Shown here piece after piece: positions 654 to 5,183 of a stretch of DNA of 5,380 nucleotides. Numbering within the stretch: position 1 is the first letter of the stretch; every line of letters starts with the position of its first letter. Source of the DNA: Candidatus Desantisiibacteriota bacterium (GTDB taxonomy: Bacteria > JACRDZ01); NCBI GenBank assembly GCA_016209155.1, contig JACQWU010000059.1, forward strand, positions 1-5,380, written 5' to 3'. Position numbers and translations under genes: made by a program. The notes under the pieces are model-generated. The model ran no database searches. It saw only the letters and a list, made by a program, of their open reading frames with translations, and was not told the origin of the DNA.

Positions 654-662
654 GGAGAAAAT

Positions 663-1163
663 ATAAATATCGAAGTAATGATAGTTCCGTGAGAACGCTT
701 TATGCAGATATATTATCTGAAGCTCAAGGAGTGTACAACGGCATACACAAACTCTCAGAAATAAAGATATTTATCAGAGCAGCGAAGGCATGTTCTAAAT
801 TTAATTAAAGATTAAAAGAAGGTAGTTAATAAAGATTTAGTTGTTACAAATGCGATGCCTGGATTTGGCTGGCACGCATACGGATTAGCGGTGGATTATG
901 TCTTTGATGGCAATCTTCAGAAAATTGGATTGCAATGGTCATGGGATGATGCGGATTTAACGAAGCCAGGAAAGCAACCTTTACCGTGGAAAAGATTAGG
1001 CGGACTTGGAGCTTCGCTAGGATTAGAATGGGCGGGTTACTGGAAGCATTTTCCAGAATGTCCGCATTTTCAATCTGTTTATGGACTAAAAATAACACAG
1101 GTGTATAATATTCTTATCAATGAGGGATTGCCTGCTGTGTGGAAAATTTTAGATAAAAAATAA
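663..1163 (+). pseudogene. Broken M15-family metallopeptidase (endolysin type)
   Basis: The 3' part (855-1163) encodes the active-site half of a VanY/L-Ala-D-Glu-type M15 peptidase: WHAYGLAVD supplies zinc ligands His7 and Asp14 (numbered from Met855), and LEWAGYWKHFPECPHFQ supplies Glu68 and zinc ligand His71. This family cuts peptidoglycan stem peptides and commonly serves as phage endolysin. The N-terminal half is damaged. An SD AAGGAG (652-657) faces ATA at 663 where ATG would be expected. A one-base loss near 671 shifts the frame into SSVRTLYADILSEAQGVYNG, which resembles the usual N-terminus. That frame ends at TAA 806-808, and the open frame for the active-site half resumes only at about 816, apparently after an internal deletion. 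No SD precedes ATG 855, so a functional product is doubtful. No signal peptide is seen. Confidence 0.75.
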
Positions 1164-1322: not shown

Positions 1323-1503
1323 GTGGAATATGGAAAAATTAATTGACATTGACGGCAATGCGTATTCGACTGTCCAGATTGGCAATCAAATTTGGACAAC
1401 AAAAAACCTCAGTACCACAAAATTTAATGACGGTACAGTCATACCTAATGTTATTGATGATGAGCAATGGTCAAAACTTATTACTCCCGGCTATTGTTTT
1501 TAT
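1323..1503 (+). repeat. Long direct repeat, copy 1 (5' end of FISUMP gene 1)
   Basis: The segment from the SD/start region (1323-1347) and then 1371-1503 recurs at 2917-2941 and 2944-3076. The 133-base block 1371-1503 differs from its partner by only two substitutions (1437 A versus G, 1481 T versus C). The 25-base start block differs by two. Copy 1 carries 21 more bases between the blocks, which encode IDGNAYS. Beyond 1503 the identity falls sharply. Confidence 0.9.
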
Positions 1504-1869
1504 GACAACACTGCAGATATATCCGCACGGGAGAAGTATGGAGCATTGTACAACTGGTATGCGGTGGATACGAAGAAACTGGCTCCTACGGGTTGGCATG
1601 TTCCTACGGATGCGGAATGGCAGACATTGTCGGATTTTCTTGGTGGAGATGGTGTGGCAAGGATAGAGATGTTTGAAGAATTTCTGTGTGGTTATCGTGG
1701 TTATGGTGCTAATTTCGATTACCAGGATTGTATTGGTGGTTGGTGGAGCACTGCTGAGTCCGATGCGTTACATGCGTACAGTCGTAATCTCTACTACAGG
1801 GATAGTATCCTGAATAGGGATGACGATGATAAGGTGTATGGATTCTCTGTCAGGTTGATAAAAGATTAA
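1330..1869 (+). CDS. FISUMP-domain protein 1, 179 aa
   Basis: The gene starts at ATG 1330 with an excellent SD, AAAAGGAGGTGG at 1315-1326. The sequence carries the hallmarks of the Fibrobacter succinogenes major paralogous (FISUMP, TIGR02145-type) domain in order: VQIGNQIWTTKNL, PGYCFYDN, KYGALYNWYAV, LAPTGWHVPTDAEW, CGYRGYG, GGWWST and a terminal GFSVRLIKD. Family proteins are usually secreted or surface proteins of unknown activity; this one has no signal peptide, which fits a virion or accessory protein rather than a Sec-exported one. Compared with copy 2 it lacks about 18 residues between SDFL and GYR, including the usual NESGFSAL core, so it may be a shortened or defective version. It is followed after 12 bases by the membrane protein gene at 1882. 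An adhesin-like role is inference. Confidence 0.85.
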   Translation: MEKLIDIDGNAYSTVQIGNQIWTTKNLSTTKFNDGTVIPNVIDDEQWSKLITPGYCFYDNTADISAREKYGALYNWYAVDTKKLAPTGWHVPTDAEWQTLSDFLGGDGVARIEMFEEFLCGYRGYGANFDYQDCIGGWWSTAESDALHAYSRNLYYRDSILNRDDDDKVYGFSVRLIKD

Positions 1870-1881
1870 GGAGAATAAAAA

Positions 1882-2085
1882 ATGAGCGACCAGAAAACAA
1901 TCATAGCAATTTGGCTGACTGCCATTTTTACAGCGATGATAATTTACTTTTTTCTCGTCCGCTTTGGCGATCAGGCGGGAGAGATCAAGCGCCTGCAAGT
2001 ACATATCAGCAGATTGGAATCCACGATTATTGAATATCAAAAAGCAATACCTGATACAATGTTATCAGCAGGGGAAATGCCATAA
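1882..2085 (+). CDS. Small membrane protein with coiled-coil tail, 67 aa
   Basis: ATG 1882 is preceded by AAGGAG (1868-1873) overlapping the stop of FISUMP gene 1, so translation is probably coupled. Residues 7-26 form one hydrophobic transmembrane helix, followed by Arg27 and a predicted amphipathic coiled coil at about 28-56 (GEIKRLQVHISRLESTIIEY). This single N-terminal anchor plus helical tail resembles inner-membrane spanins and other small phage lysis proteins in layout only; no family signature is visible. With a peptidase remnant upstream and another small membrane gene downstream, a lysis-related role is possible but unproven. Confidence 0.7.
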   Translation: MSDQKTIIAIWLTAIFTAMIIYFFLVRFGDQAGEIKRLQVHISRLESTIIEYQKAIPDTMLSAGEMP

Positions 2086-2099
2086 ATCAGGAGGAGTAA

Positions 2100-2213
2100 A
2101 TGGATAAGCACAGAATCTTCTTCGCGGGCTTTGGCTGCGGAATATTTTTTTGGTGGTTTATAGGCTTGATAATTGAAGCATGGCGAGAAGCAAGGAGGGG
2201 GAAAGTAAAATGA
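2100..2213 (+). CDS. Small membrane protein, 37 aa
   Basis: This gene has a strong SD (CAGGAGGAG, 2088-2096) before ATG 2100 and ends in TGA 2211-2213, which overlaps the next ATG (2210) in an ATGA junction typical of translational coupling. The protein starts MDKHRIFFAGFGCGIFF and has one hydrophobic, aromatic-rich helix at about residues 6-25, followed by a basic tail (EAWREARRGKVK). A truncated relative occurs at 5116-5169, so this is a duplicated gene family within the element. Function unknown; a small phage membrane protein. Confidence 0.65.
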   Translation: MDKHRIFFAGFGCGIFFWWFIGLIIEAWREARRGKVK

Positions 2214-2380
2214 AATACATTAAAAGGCCGGAAATTGTTCAGGCATTCCAGTGGAAAGGATCTCTGGATGCGGGGATATATCCGCAATGGTTCGATGAGC
2301 TGGTCAGTCGCAAAAGATTTACAACACATAGCTTAAATAACATAATTTTTACAGAAAATAATTATGTCTATGTGGTGTAA
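2210..2380 (+). CDS. Truncated phage protein of the MKY-K-P/AFQW type, 56 aa
   Basis: The start chosen is ATG 2210, because AAGGAGGGGG lies at 2191-2200 and because family members begin MKYxKRP-x-x-x-AFQW. An upstream in-frame ATG at 2180 would run through the SD itself. The protein matches the N-terminus of a common phage protein of unknown function (MKYIKRPEIVQAFQWKG, then PQWFDEL), which normally continues to a motif like YxVRG near its C-terminus. Here the frame stops at TAA 2378-2380 directly after NNYVYVV, and the expected motif appears in another frame as VIRGIAENVFEK at 2377-2412. The gene is therefore probably frameshifted and C-terminally truncated. It is coupled to 2100-2213 by the ATGA overlap. 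Confidence 0.65.
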   Translation: MKYIKRPEIVQAFQWKGSLDAGIYPQWFDELVSRKRFTTHSLNNIIFTENNYVYVV

Positions 2381-2398
2381 TTAGAGGTATTGCAGAAA

Positions 2399-2656
2399 AT
2401 GTTTTTGAAAAAATACTACTGCTCAAATCCTAAGTGGTATTGGGTGGCCGATCAGATCGGCGGCATTCTGTACGTCAATGATAATTTTTACAGTATGGAA
2501 AATATTGTTAATTGCCTAAAGCTGAATGTTACCGCAAAGGATTTATTTGCATGGTACACTAATAGCGTTGACGAGGCGATGAAAGGTGGTTCAATTAATC
2601 TGGTAAATTGGCTAAAATTAAAGAAAGGAGAAAGACTATGGGCGGAGGAAATTTAA
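2399..2656 (+). CDS. Small phage-type protein of unknown function, 85 aa
   Basis: ATG 2399 is preferred because GAGGT at 2384-2388 is well placed for it; a TTG at 2390 would lie only one base after that SD. The frame is the same as that of the preceding gene and is separated from it by a single TAA (2378-2380), so this could be the second half of one broken gene. The protein has an aromatic N-terminus (KKYYCSNPKWYWV), a central ILYVNDNFYSMENIV and a C-terminal SVDEAMKGGSINLVNW segment. This reminds me of short accessory proteins of tailed phages, but I cannot name a family. Its end overlaps the next gene by 19 bases. Confidence 0.6.
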   Translation: MFLKKYYCSNPKWYWVADQIGGILYVNDNFYSMENIVNCLKLNVTAKDLFAWYTNSVDEAMKGGSINLVNWLKLKKGERLWAEEI

Positions 2657-2940
2657 ATCATGCATATTTTCGTGTCAATGACATAGTAGACGATATTAAG
2701 AGACAGATGACCACGCCGTTACATCGGGCTTTCGCGGAGCATCTGTTAAAAGTATCAAAGGCGTTGCACGATTTGGAATGGATGTTTTCGGGCGATACGA
2801 AGCCAGGGGATGAAGTTGAATCTATCCGTGCGATTGTATCTCCACAGGAAGAACTGGCGCATACTATAGAGAGAGCTAATATAGTACTGGCGGAATTGAA
2901 AGATTGTCTTGAAAGAGTGGAACATGGAAAAGTTAATTGA
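2638..2940 (+). CDS. MGGG-type small phage protein, 100 aa
   Basis: ATG 2638 is chosen over the in-frame ATG 2608 because AAAGGAG lies at 2623-2629 and because the protein then begins MGGGN with an aromatic YF-R-V-x-DI segment, a start I associate with a family of small phage hypothetical proteins. The rest is predicted all-helical: a helix near residues 16-45 containing LHDLEWMFSGD, and a C-terminal helix (ELAHTIERANIVLAELKDCLERV). No catalytic motif is seen. The last residues (VEHGKVN) are encoded by the start region of FISUMP gene 2, read in another frame, so the original C-terminus was probably replaced when that copy arrived. Confidence 0.7.
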   Translation: MGGGNLNHAYFRVNDIVDDIKRQMTTPLHRAFAEHLLKVSKALHDLEWMFSGDTKPGDEVESIRAIVSPQEELAHTIERANIVLAELKDCLERVEHGKVN

Positions 2941-3076
2941 CGTTGTCCAGATTGGCAATCAAATTTGGACAACAAAAAACCTCAGTACCACAAAATTTAA
3001 TGACGGTACGGTCATACCTAATGTTATTGATGATGAGCAATGGTCAAAACTTACTACTCCCGGCTATTGTTTTTAT
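2917..3076 (+). repeat. Long direct repeat, copy 2 (5' end of FISUMP gene 2)
   Basis: This is the partner of 1323-1503. It includes the start region 2917-2941 and the 133-base block 2944-3076 with two mismatches to copy 1. It lacks 21 bases present in copy 1. Its left edge lies inside the 3' end of the gene at 2638, so it marks a likely recombination junction. Confidence 0.9.
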
Positions 3077-3496
3077 TACAATACGACCGATGTTAAGGCG
3101 CAGAAGAAATACGGCGTTTTATATAACTGGTATGCTCTGGAAAAACTTGCTCCCGCTGGTTGGCATATACCAACTGATGCAGAATGGCAGACGCTGTCAG
3201 ATTATCTTAGAGAAGATGCTATAGCGAGAGGAAAAATAAACGAGGCGGGAAATTGGCAATTATCCGATGTCGGAGCAATTAATGAGAGCGGATTCTCTGC
3301 TCTTTTGAGTGGTTACCGTCAGATCAATGGTTATTTCACTAATCAGAGTTACAGCGATAACTGGTGGAGCGCTACGATGTCCGATGCGTCAGTCGCGTAC
3401 GCATACTATCGTACCACTTCCCACTATCCCGACTACCTGCCTAGGTACTGCATCAATAAAACATGCGGGTTCTCTATCCGATTAGTGAAGGATTAA
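2924..3496 (+). CDS. FISUMP-domain protein 2, 190 aa
   Basis: The start is taken as ATG 2924 (MEKLIDVVQIG) by comparison with paralogue 1; an upstream in-frame ATG at 2909 is possible. The SD is weak (AAAGAGTGG, 2912-2920), and the gene overlaps the previous one by 17 bases, so coupling is likely. It keeps the whole FISUMP series: IGNQIWTTKNL, PGYCFYYN, KYGVLYNWYA, LAPAGWHIPTDAEW, INESGFSALLSGYR, DNWWSA and a final GFSIRLVKD. It lacks seven N-terminal residues of paralogue 1 but retains the 18-residue core that paralogue 1 has lost, so it is the more complete copy. The region after WWSA is rich in Tyr, Thr, Ser and His and is the part most different from paralogue 1. No signal peptide. Probable binding or surface protein; activity unknown. 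Confidence 0.85.
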   Translation: MEKLIDVVQIGNQIWTTKNLSTTKFNDGTVIPNVIDDEQWSKLTTPGYCFYYNTTDVKAQKKYGVLYNWYALEKLAPAGWHIPTDAEWQTLSDYLREDAIARGKINEAGNWQLSDVGAINESGFSALLSGYRQINGYFTNQSYSDNWWSATMSDASVAYAYYRTTSHYPDYLPRYCINKTCGFSIRLVKD

Positions 3497-4534: not shown

Positions 4535-5119
4535 ATGAAAATTAGGAGAGATGCCATGCAAATAAATCTTGACGTTCAATCACTTGCCGTGAGTGACGGT
4601 AATCTTTTTGCTAGGATTGATGGTGGTATTTTACGTTCCACAGATAATGGGAAAACCTGGACTCATATGGATATTGGATTGATAAATAATTACGTTCAAG
4701 TACTTGCTGTAAACGGTAGTAATCTTTTTGCTGGGACTTTGGGCAGTGGTGTTTTCCGTTCCACAGATAATGGTGAAACATGGATTCCAATAAATACCGG
4801 ATTGACAGACCTAAATATTTATGCACTTGCCGTGATTGGATCTGACCTCATCGTAGAGACTTGGAGTGGTATTGTTCATCTCTCCACGAATAAGGGTGAT
4901 ACTTGGACTGAAGAGTTCTTTTTATACAGGAAGAAAAAAGAAGACGTGATGAAAATAAATTTTAAGGACCTTCGACGTATGTGCAAATGGTGTTGGCAGG
5001 AATGCGGCACAGATGTGAGGTATTTTTGTGGTGGAGAAAAAAGAGACTGTATGGAAGAATCGTGTCTGTTAAATCAGGAAATCCCCAAAACCAACAAACT
5101 GGAAAGGATTATGAAATGA
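4535..5119 (+). CDS. Asp-box (BNR) repeat protein with Cys-rich tail, 194 aa
   Basis: Two starts are equally well equipped: ATG 4535 (SD AGGAGAGAT, 4523-4531) and ATG 4556 (the same SD again, 4544-4552). Numbered from 4556, residues 7-120 form three repeats of about 40 residues, each with LAV..., a LF/LIxxT-like strand and an Asp box: STDNGKTW, STDNGETW and the weaker STNKGDTW. Such repeats build beta-propeller blades in sialidases, photosystem assembly factor-like and many surface proteins; three blades are too few for a closed propeller, so this is a fragment, an oligomer or a spike-type element. No sialidase catalytic residues or signal peptide are visible. From about residue 132 a distinct Cys-rich segment follows (CKWCWQEC, YFCGG, RDC, ESC), possibly zinc binding and possibly a separate gene starting at ATG 4949 that has become fused in frame. 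Confidence 0.75.
   Translation: MKIRRDAMQINLDVQSLAVSDGNLFARIDGGILRSTDNGKTWTHMDIGLINNYVQVLAVNGSNLFAGTLGSGVFRSTDNGETWIPINTGLTDLNIYALAVIGSDLIVETWSGIVHLSTNKGDTWTEEFFLYRKKKEDVMKINFKDLRRMCKWCWQECGTDVRYFCGGEKRDCMEESCLLNQEIPKTNKLERIMK
4574..4915 (+). repeat. Three tandem Asp-box coding repeats
   Basis: Units run 4574-4693 (40 codons), 4694-4816 (41 codons) and 4817-4915 (33 codons, incomplete). Units 1 and 2 share long DNA stretches, such as GGTAATCTTTTTGCT-like and CGTTCCACAGATAATGG segments. Unit 3 is more diverged and has lost the second Asp of the Asp box. This indicates recent duplication of at least one unit. Confidence 0.75.
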
Positions 5120-5169
5120 ACCATTACACGATCTTCTGTATTGGCTTTGATTGCGGGATATTCATCTAG
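5116..5169 (+). pseudogene. Truncated copy of the small membrane protein gene at 2100
   Basis: ATG 5116 overlaps the TGA of the previous gene (ATGA) and encodes MNHYTIFCIGFDCGIFI before TAG 5167-5169. It aligns without gaps with MDKHRIFFAGFGCGIFF, the start of the protein at 2100, with 9 of 17 residues identical, and then stops where the homologue enters its hydrophobic Trp-rich segment. It is probably a nonsense-truncated paralogue. A 17-residue functional peptide cannot be excluded because the overlap with the upstream gene is typical of working genes here. Confidence 0.6.
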
Positions 5170-5183
5170 TGGTAGGAGAACAA

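What the first reader, a model, noticed from the sequence alone, without database searches (positions are those of the whole stretch)
1323..3496. FISUMP pair with nearly identical 5' ends and strongly diverged C-terminal halves
The 133-base blocks 1371-1503 and 2944-3076 differ at two bases, yet the rest of the two genes differs widely, including at silent positions. In the ungapped 20-codon block 1783-1842 versus 3410-3469, about 5 residues agree. An abrupt switch from about 98% identity to strong divergence points to recombination or gene conversion that keeps one head on different tails. This is like variable receptor-binding modules of phages.
Basis: partly seen in the sequence, partly recalled or inferred. 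Interest (0 to 1): 0.75.

Follow-up and report, generated by a model that had tools for sequence, protein, structure and literature searches.

The report
Twin binding genes with retroelement-scarred tails
A short, probably viral DNA piece carries two lectin-like binding genes whose first quarter was recently copied from one to the other, while their binding ends carry the codon fingerprint of diversity-generating retroelements, which rewrite binding surfaces; the parts are known, but this combination in one gene pair is unusual.

Summary
Two FISUMP (PF09603) genes, 1330-1869 and 2924-3496, share a 133-bp block with 2 mismatches; identity then drops abruptly at copy-2 residue 53 (third-position identity 0.96 to 0.53; permutation p=0.002; second sharpest of 73 same-locus FISUMP pairs). 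A gradual decline is excluded. The gene has three zones, not two: a homogenised head (about 160 bp), an anciently diverged body, and a hypervariable tail from residue 118 (copy 1) or 127 (copy 2) onward. The head is best explained by recent gene conversion or head replacement between paralogs. The tail needs another explanation. A related genome holds a complete diversity-generating retroelement (DGR) whose template repeat aligns with exactly this tail (30 of 31 template-variable differences at template adenines). At columns where that template has AAC/AAT, both window copies carry NNC/NNT codons in 25 of 27 positions, against 52-54% elsewhere (p=4e-5 and 7e-5). So the tails look like DGR variable regions, active or fossil. 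No template or DGR reverse transcriptase serving them was found: the contig is only 5.4 kb, and the genome bin's own DGR targets another gene. The predicted fold is C-type lectin. Function as a (pro)phage binding protein is inferred.

The parts
1330..1869 (+). FISUMP copy 1 (179 aa), PF09603/TIGR02145
   Evidence: Pfam E=1.8e-28, 100.5 bits vs cut-off 33.9; NCBIfam TIGR02145 75 bits vs cut-off 41.65
2924..3496 (+). FISUMP copy 2 (190 aa), PF09603/TIGR02145
   Evidence: Pfam E=4.3e-36, 125.4 bits; TIGR02145 91.5 bits; AlphaFold model pLDDT 80, C-type lectin fold hits
1323..1505 (+). Head tract of copy 1, from the ribosome-binding-site area through GYCFY
   Evidence: direct repeats 1323-1351/2917-2945 (90%) and 1371-1503/2944-3076 (131/133); change point
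2917..3078 (+). Head tract of copy 2, homogenised with copy 1; lacks 21 nt equivalent to 1351-1371
1506..1680 (+). Body of copy 1, anciently diverged from copy 2 (dS saturated)
3079..3301 (+). Body of copy 2
1681..1866 (+). DGR-variable-region-like tail of copy 1 (62 codons, ungapped against the template of a related DGR)
   Evidence: 25 of 27 AAY-equivalent columns are NNY, p=4e-5 vs rest of gene; template/variable pair in L222
3302..3493 (+). DGR-variable-region-like tail of copy 2 (64 codons)
   Evidence: 25 of 27 AAY-equivalent columns are NNY, p=7e-5
2638..2940 (+). Phage-type ORF (100 aa); its last codons (VEHGKVN) overlap the start of the FISUMP-2 head tract
   Evidence: relatives at 45-52% identity in three IMG/VR contigs, which end at 94-95 aa with unrelated C-termini
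855..1163 (+). M15-type endolysin, probably N-terminally broken (upstream fragment in another frame, 662-805)
   Evidence: PF13539 8e-9, above cut-off; PHROG endolysin 1.5e-10; three-frame translation

Best explanation
The pair are paralogous C-type-lectin-fold (FISUMP) binding proteins, probably on a (pro)phage contig. Two processes made the pattern. First, the 5' tract (about 160 bp: ribosome-binding-site area, start, first ~52 residues) was recently copied from one paralog to the other by gene conversion or short-homology recombination; it ends near residue 53, between the N-terminal strands and the body. Second, the last 62-64 codons are DGR-type variable regions: sites that were AAC/AAT in a template became NNC/NNT, changing the predicted ligand-facing loops while a W/R/L/K/G framework stays. 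Shown: the change point, the synonymous contrast, the codon footprint, and a related genome with a template, RT and FISUMP variable region. Inferred: that the window tails were made by such an element, that it may act or have acted in trans, and that the proteins bind host-surface ligands.
For: Abrupt synonymous change point at residue 53, p=0.002; head dS 0.07 vs saturated body and tail. The left end of the tract lies in the last codons of a phage ORF whose relatives end earlier with other C-termini. A DGR in a related genome (L222, G146) has a template aligned to FISUMP residues 127-190, 30 of 31 differences at template adenines, with a DGR-type RT beside it. With columns fixed by that template, 25/27 NNY in both window copies (p=4e-5, 7e-5); restricted to residues with free third-base choice 17/20 vs 93/174, p=0.005. 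FISUMP tails in L109, L066, L093 and phage G098 vary at codon positions 1-2 with fixed third bases. Published precedent: Fib_succ_major is a DGR target domain (PMC4159848, PMC8143477). C-type lectin fold: best Z 8.0 to the Lcl C-terminal domain, 7.6 to Bd2740, and most further rows are C-type lectins.
Against: No template copy of either tail in the bin and no RT on the 5.4-kb contig. The bin's own DGR (contig C97) targets an FGE-sulfatase gene and its template does not match the window. Between the two tails the third positions at AAY-equivalent columns also differ (14 of 27), so they are not recent products of one template. NNY enrichment is common across the family (mean 0.82 at these columns in 145 domains), so the footprint may be inherited rather than active. 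The window has no structural phage gene.
Confidence: 0.68

Rival explanations
1. Pure modular recombination: a shared head was joined to two already diverged FISUMP bodies and tails from different phages; tail divergence is ordinary divergence under diversifying selection, without any retroelement.
For: Sharp breakpoint; other FISUMP pairs are mosaic at several positions (30, 31, 32, 48, 77, 80, 110, 124, 125); body dS also saturated; no template or matching DGR found.
Against: Does not predict NNC/NNT codons at columns fixed by an unrelated template (25/27 in both copies), nor the third-base excess among free-choice residues, nor the fixed third bases in relatives' tails.
Confidence: 0.22
2. 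Assembly artefact: the 133-bp shared block is a graph repeat through which an assembler joined unrelated sequences, so one of the genes is chimeric.
For: The source is a fragmented metagenome bin of 352 contigs; the G098 phage contig ends inside an analogous FISUMP head repeat (127-bp terminal overlap).
Against: The two blocks carry two distinct mismatches and a 21-nt deletion, so both copies were resolved; both ORFs are intact and full-length domains.
Confidence: 0.06
3. A single duplication, followed by strong purifying selection on the head and fast divergence of the rest, without recombination.
For: Heads are somewhat more conserved than tails in many FISUMP pairs.
Against: The contrast is at synonymous sites (2/51 vs 29/54 third positions, p=6e-9); selection on protein cannot give dS 0.07 beside saturation.
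Confidence: 0.04

Closest known systems
DGR target proteins with C-type lectin variable domains (Mtd, TvpA; DUF1566 and Fib_succ_major targets of Bacteroides phages, PMC8143477)
   Same: C-terminal variable zone in a C-type lectin fold; NNY codons at template AAY sites; same Pfam domain reported as a DGR target; two target genes in one phage (Bacuni phages)
   Different: No template or RT found for the window genes; the paralogs additionally share a recently homogenised N-terminal tract
FISUMP target plus DGR in genome G146 (L222, genome of locus L104)
   Same: Template spans precisely the tail zone (residues 127-190 of copy 2); framework residues shared with the window (18/35 and 17/35)
   Different: Bacterial contig with adjacent RT and template; only one FISUMP target seen beside that RT
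FISUMP pair of phage contig IMGVR_UViG_3300031772_000002 (G098/L119)
   Same: Neighbouring FISUMP genes, identical at third positions over the sampled head (residues 31-77), different bodies, tails with mostly fixed third bases
   Different: The tails clearly share one template lineage; the window tails do not; the only RT on that contig is retron-like
Lcl C-terminal domain of Legionella (PDB 8q4e) and Bd2740 C-terminal domain (8oks)
   Same: C-type lectin-like fold
   Different: Low sequence identity (12-16%); no variable repeat tested

Membership tests
FISUMP / Fib_succ_major (PF09603, TIGR02145) | Profile match above curated cut-off over the full domain | tested here: met
   100.5 and 125.4 bits vs 33.9 over profile 1-187; TIGR02145 75 and 91.5 vs 41.65
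C-type lectin fold | Structural match over the domain | tested here: met
   Model pLDDT 80, pTM 0.81; top VIA-align rows are mostly C-type lectins spanning residues 2-190, best Z 8.0, rmsd 2.7 over 97 residues; Foldseek alone was weak (best E 0.07)
DGR target gene (variable region) | Codons at template AAC/AAT positions are NNC/NNT, with a conserved framework between them | tested here: met
   25/27 in both copies with columns set by a template from another genome; free-choice residues p=0.005
DGR target gene (variable region) | A homologous template repeat in the same genome, differences at template adenines | tested here: not met
   No second copy of either tail in the bin; the bin's only recognised DGR template does not match. 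The bin is 79% complete and the contig 5.4 kb, so absence is weak, but membership of an active DGR is not claimed
DGR target gene (variable region) | DGR-type reverse transcriptase serving the gene | tested here: inconclusive
   A DGR-type RT exists in the bin on contig C97 beside its own FGE-sulfatase target and template; no link to this contig
Gene-conversion / recombinant paralog pair | Abrupt change of synonymous identity with a defined tract | tested here: met
Phage receptor-binding protein | Incorporated at the virion tail and binds a host receptor | not testable with these tools
   Context only: endolysin remnant, an ORF with viral relatives, atypical tetranucleotide composition; FISUMP ends long tail-like proteins in L122, L120 and L009

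The most novel reading that the evidence does not exclude
The two genes form a two-layer diversification system: DGR mutagenesis, possibly supplied in trans by a host or co-resident element, rewrites the lectin face, while gene conversion keeps the N-terminal platform of the paralogs identical, with the exchange boundary near residue 53, the same place where other phages have circularly permuted the domain (body first, head last).
Probability: 0.15. Interest if true: 0.7.

Novelty: new variant of a known kind. Interest (0 to 1): 0.48.

Why it matters
It shows that a DGR footprint can be recognised in a gene on a small contig with no template or RT, by taking the AAY columns from a relative's template. 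It also separates two processes, recombination of the head and retroelement-type rewriting of the tail, that look like a single switch by eye. If the footprint holds across FISUMP genes in bins without any recognised DGR RT, it bears on how often variable regions are served from a distance or persist as fossils, a class the large DGR survey says its method would miss (remote targets, PMC8144416).

Tried and rejected
A DGR template in the window or bin matching the tails: none. De novo template search within fetched FISUMP loci: no hit outside FISUMP domains. The RT of phage G098 is retron-like, not DGR, and no template was found on the stretches of that contig searched piece by piece. RT search in G104, G105 and G106, whose FISUMP tails show the strongest footprint: none; unexplained. 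Exact head pattern in IMG/VR: none. Nucleotide match of the window to phages: none. Structure of the permuted L121 protein: failed without an alignment (pLDDT 30), so the permutation is a sequence observation only. PDB sequence search: nothing. Foldseek returned no significant PDB match; the fold call rests on VIA-align.

Full report
Observation. The two FISUMP genes are real, intact, and both above the Pfam and NCBIfam cut-offs. The shared tract also extends upstream to 1323/2917, before the start codons, and copy 2 lacks 21 bases of it (codons 8-14 of copy 1).

Abruptness. Third-position identity falls from 0.96 to 0.53 at residue 53 of copy 2. Of 73 same-locus FISUMP pairs this is the second strongest change point; 11 pairs, including this one, reach p<=0.01. 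Third positions differ in 2 of 51 head codons and 29 of 54 codons of the next stretch (counts, Fisher p=6e-9). Estimated dS is 0.07 in the head and saturated beyond. Selection on protein cannot produce this, so the head was homogenised by recombination. The direction is not proven. A hint that copy 2 was the recipient is that its tract starts inside the last codons of a phage-type ORF (2638-2940) whose viral relatives end at 94-95 aa with unrelated C-termini.

Three zones. The gene is head, body and tail. The body (to residue 117 in copy 1, 126 in copy 2) looks like ordinary old paralog divergence. The tail is different. In 143 full-length relatives the tail alternates invariant residues with columns of very high entropy. 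In pairs from L109, L066, L093 and phage G098, tails differ mainly at codon positions 1 and 2 with the third base fixed (for example 21, 22 and 4 differences at positions 1, 2 and 3). Among 22 distinct tails found with one probe, almost all from two related bins, all four bases occur at positions 1-2 of the same columns while the third base mostly stays C or T by column. That is the expected product of AAC/AAT template codons under adenine-specific mutagenesis.

Direct link to a DGR. The genome of locus L104 (G146) has a DGR-type RT, a template repeat and a FISUMP target within 4 kb (L222). Template and variable repeat differ at 31 sites, 30 of them template adenines. The template translates to LPGGNRNNNGNYNNIGNNGNWWSSTENNTNNAWNRNLNNNNGNANRNNNNKKNGFSVRCLRD, an Asn-rich version of the FISUMP tail, and aligns to residues 127-190 of window copy 2 and, without gaps, to 118-179 of copy 1.

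Test on the window. Taking the 27 AAY columns of that template as fixed in advance, 25 of 27 codons are NNY in copy 1 and 25 of 27 in copy 2, against 52% and 54% in the rest of each gene (p=4e-5 and 7e-5). Because residue preference alone could raise this, I also counted only residues with a free third-base choice: 17 of 20 against 93 of 174, p=0.005. The copy-2 alignment needed a two-residue insertion placed by hand; MAFFT's own placement gave the same 25/27 for copy 2 and 18/20 for copy 1. Across 145 FISUMP domains the mean is 0.82 at these columns vs 0.56 elsewhere, so the footprint is a family feature and may be inherited.

What is missing. The contig is 5.4 kb. No second copy of either tail exists in the bin. 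The bin does contain a DGR, on contig C97: FGE-sulfatase target, RT, and template, 9 of 10 differences at template adenines. Its template does not match the window. The two window tails also differ at third positions of the AAY columns (14 of 27), so they are not recent copies from one template. Whether a DGR acts on them now is open.

Setting. Evidence that the contig is phage-derived is moderate: an M15 endolysin, probably broken; an ORF with IMG/VR relatives; an ORF similar to a Vibrio phage protein; and a tetranucleotide profile (correlation 0.69) outside 16 length-matched pieces of the bin (0.77-0.94). The predicted structure aligns mainly to C-type lectins. A host-binding role is inferred.

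Literature. Fib_succ_major has been listed as a DGR target domain (PMC4159848), including in Bacteroides uniformis phages with two targets (PMC8143477). I found no paper on homogenised heads of FISUMP paralogs in the open-access library, which is not the whole literature.

Noticed in passing
L121:9953-10681, L122 ORF ending at 6647, L120 ORF ending at 10756: In three phage contigs the FISUMP head (profile ~3-55) stands after the body at the very C-terminus of the protein, ending near GAYCxY (GAMCYY in L120): an apparent circular permutation [body][head] whose joint lies near the window's breakpoint. In L121 the next gene starts at once, leaving no room for a lost body.
   Followed up: partly
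G105 and G106 (loci L109, L093, L171-L200): About a dozen or more FISUMP tails per bin with a strong AAY-mutagenesis footprint, yet no RVT_1 or DGR-type RT found in either bin, nor in G104. Fossil arrays, remote elements or incomplete bins.
   Followed up: partly
G000:C97 (locus L004: target 58-885, RT 1291-2403, template 2349-2464): A complete-looking DGR with an FGE-sulfatase target in the window's own genome bin; 9 of 10 substitutions at template adenines.
   Followed up: yes
G098 contig ends (L159 start, L160 end): The 164-kb phage contig has a 127-bp terminal overlap lying inside the repeated FISUMP head, so the number of FISUMP copies there is unresolved.
   Followed up: partly
window 662-1163: M15 endolysin whose N-terminal part lies in another frame with stops between: probably a broken lysis gene.
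   Followed up: partly
window 2095-2180 and 5100-5175: Two short ORF starts (MDKHRIFFAGFGCGIFF and MNHYTIFCIGFDCGIFI) are similar: a second small duplicated element in the same contig.
   Followed up: partly
window 4535-5119: BNR/sortilin-like repeat protein fused to a cysteine-rich C-terminal stretch; possibly a third adhesin-like gene on the contig.
   Followed up: no
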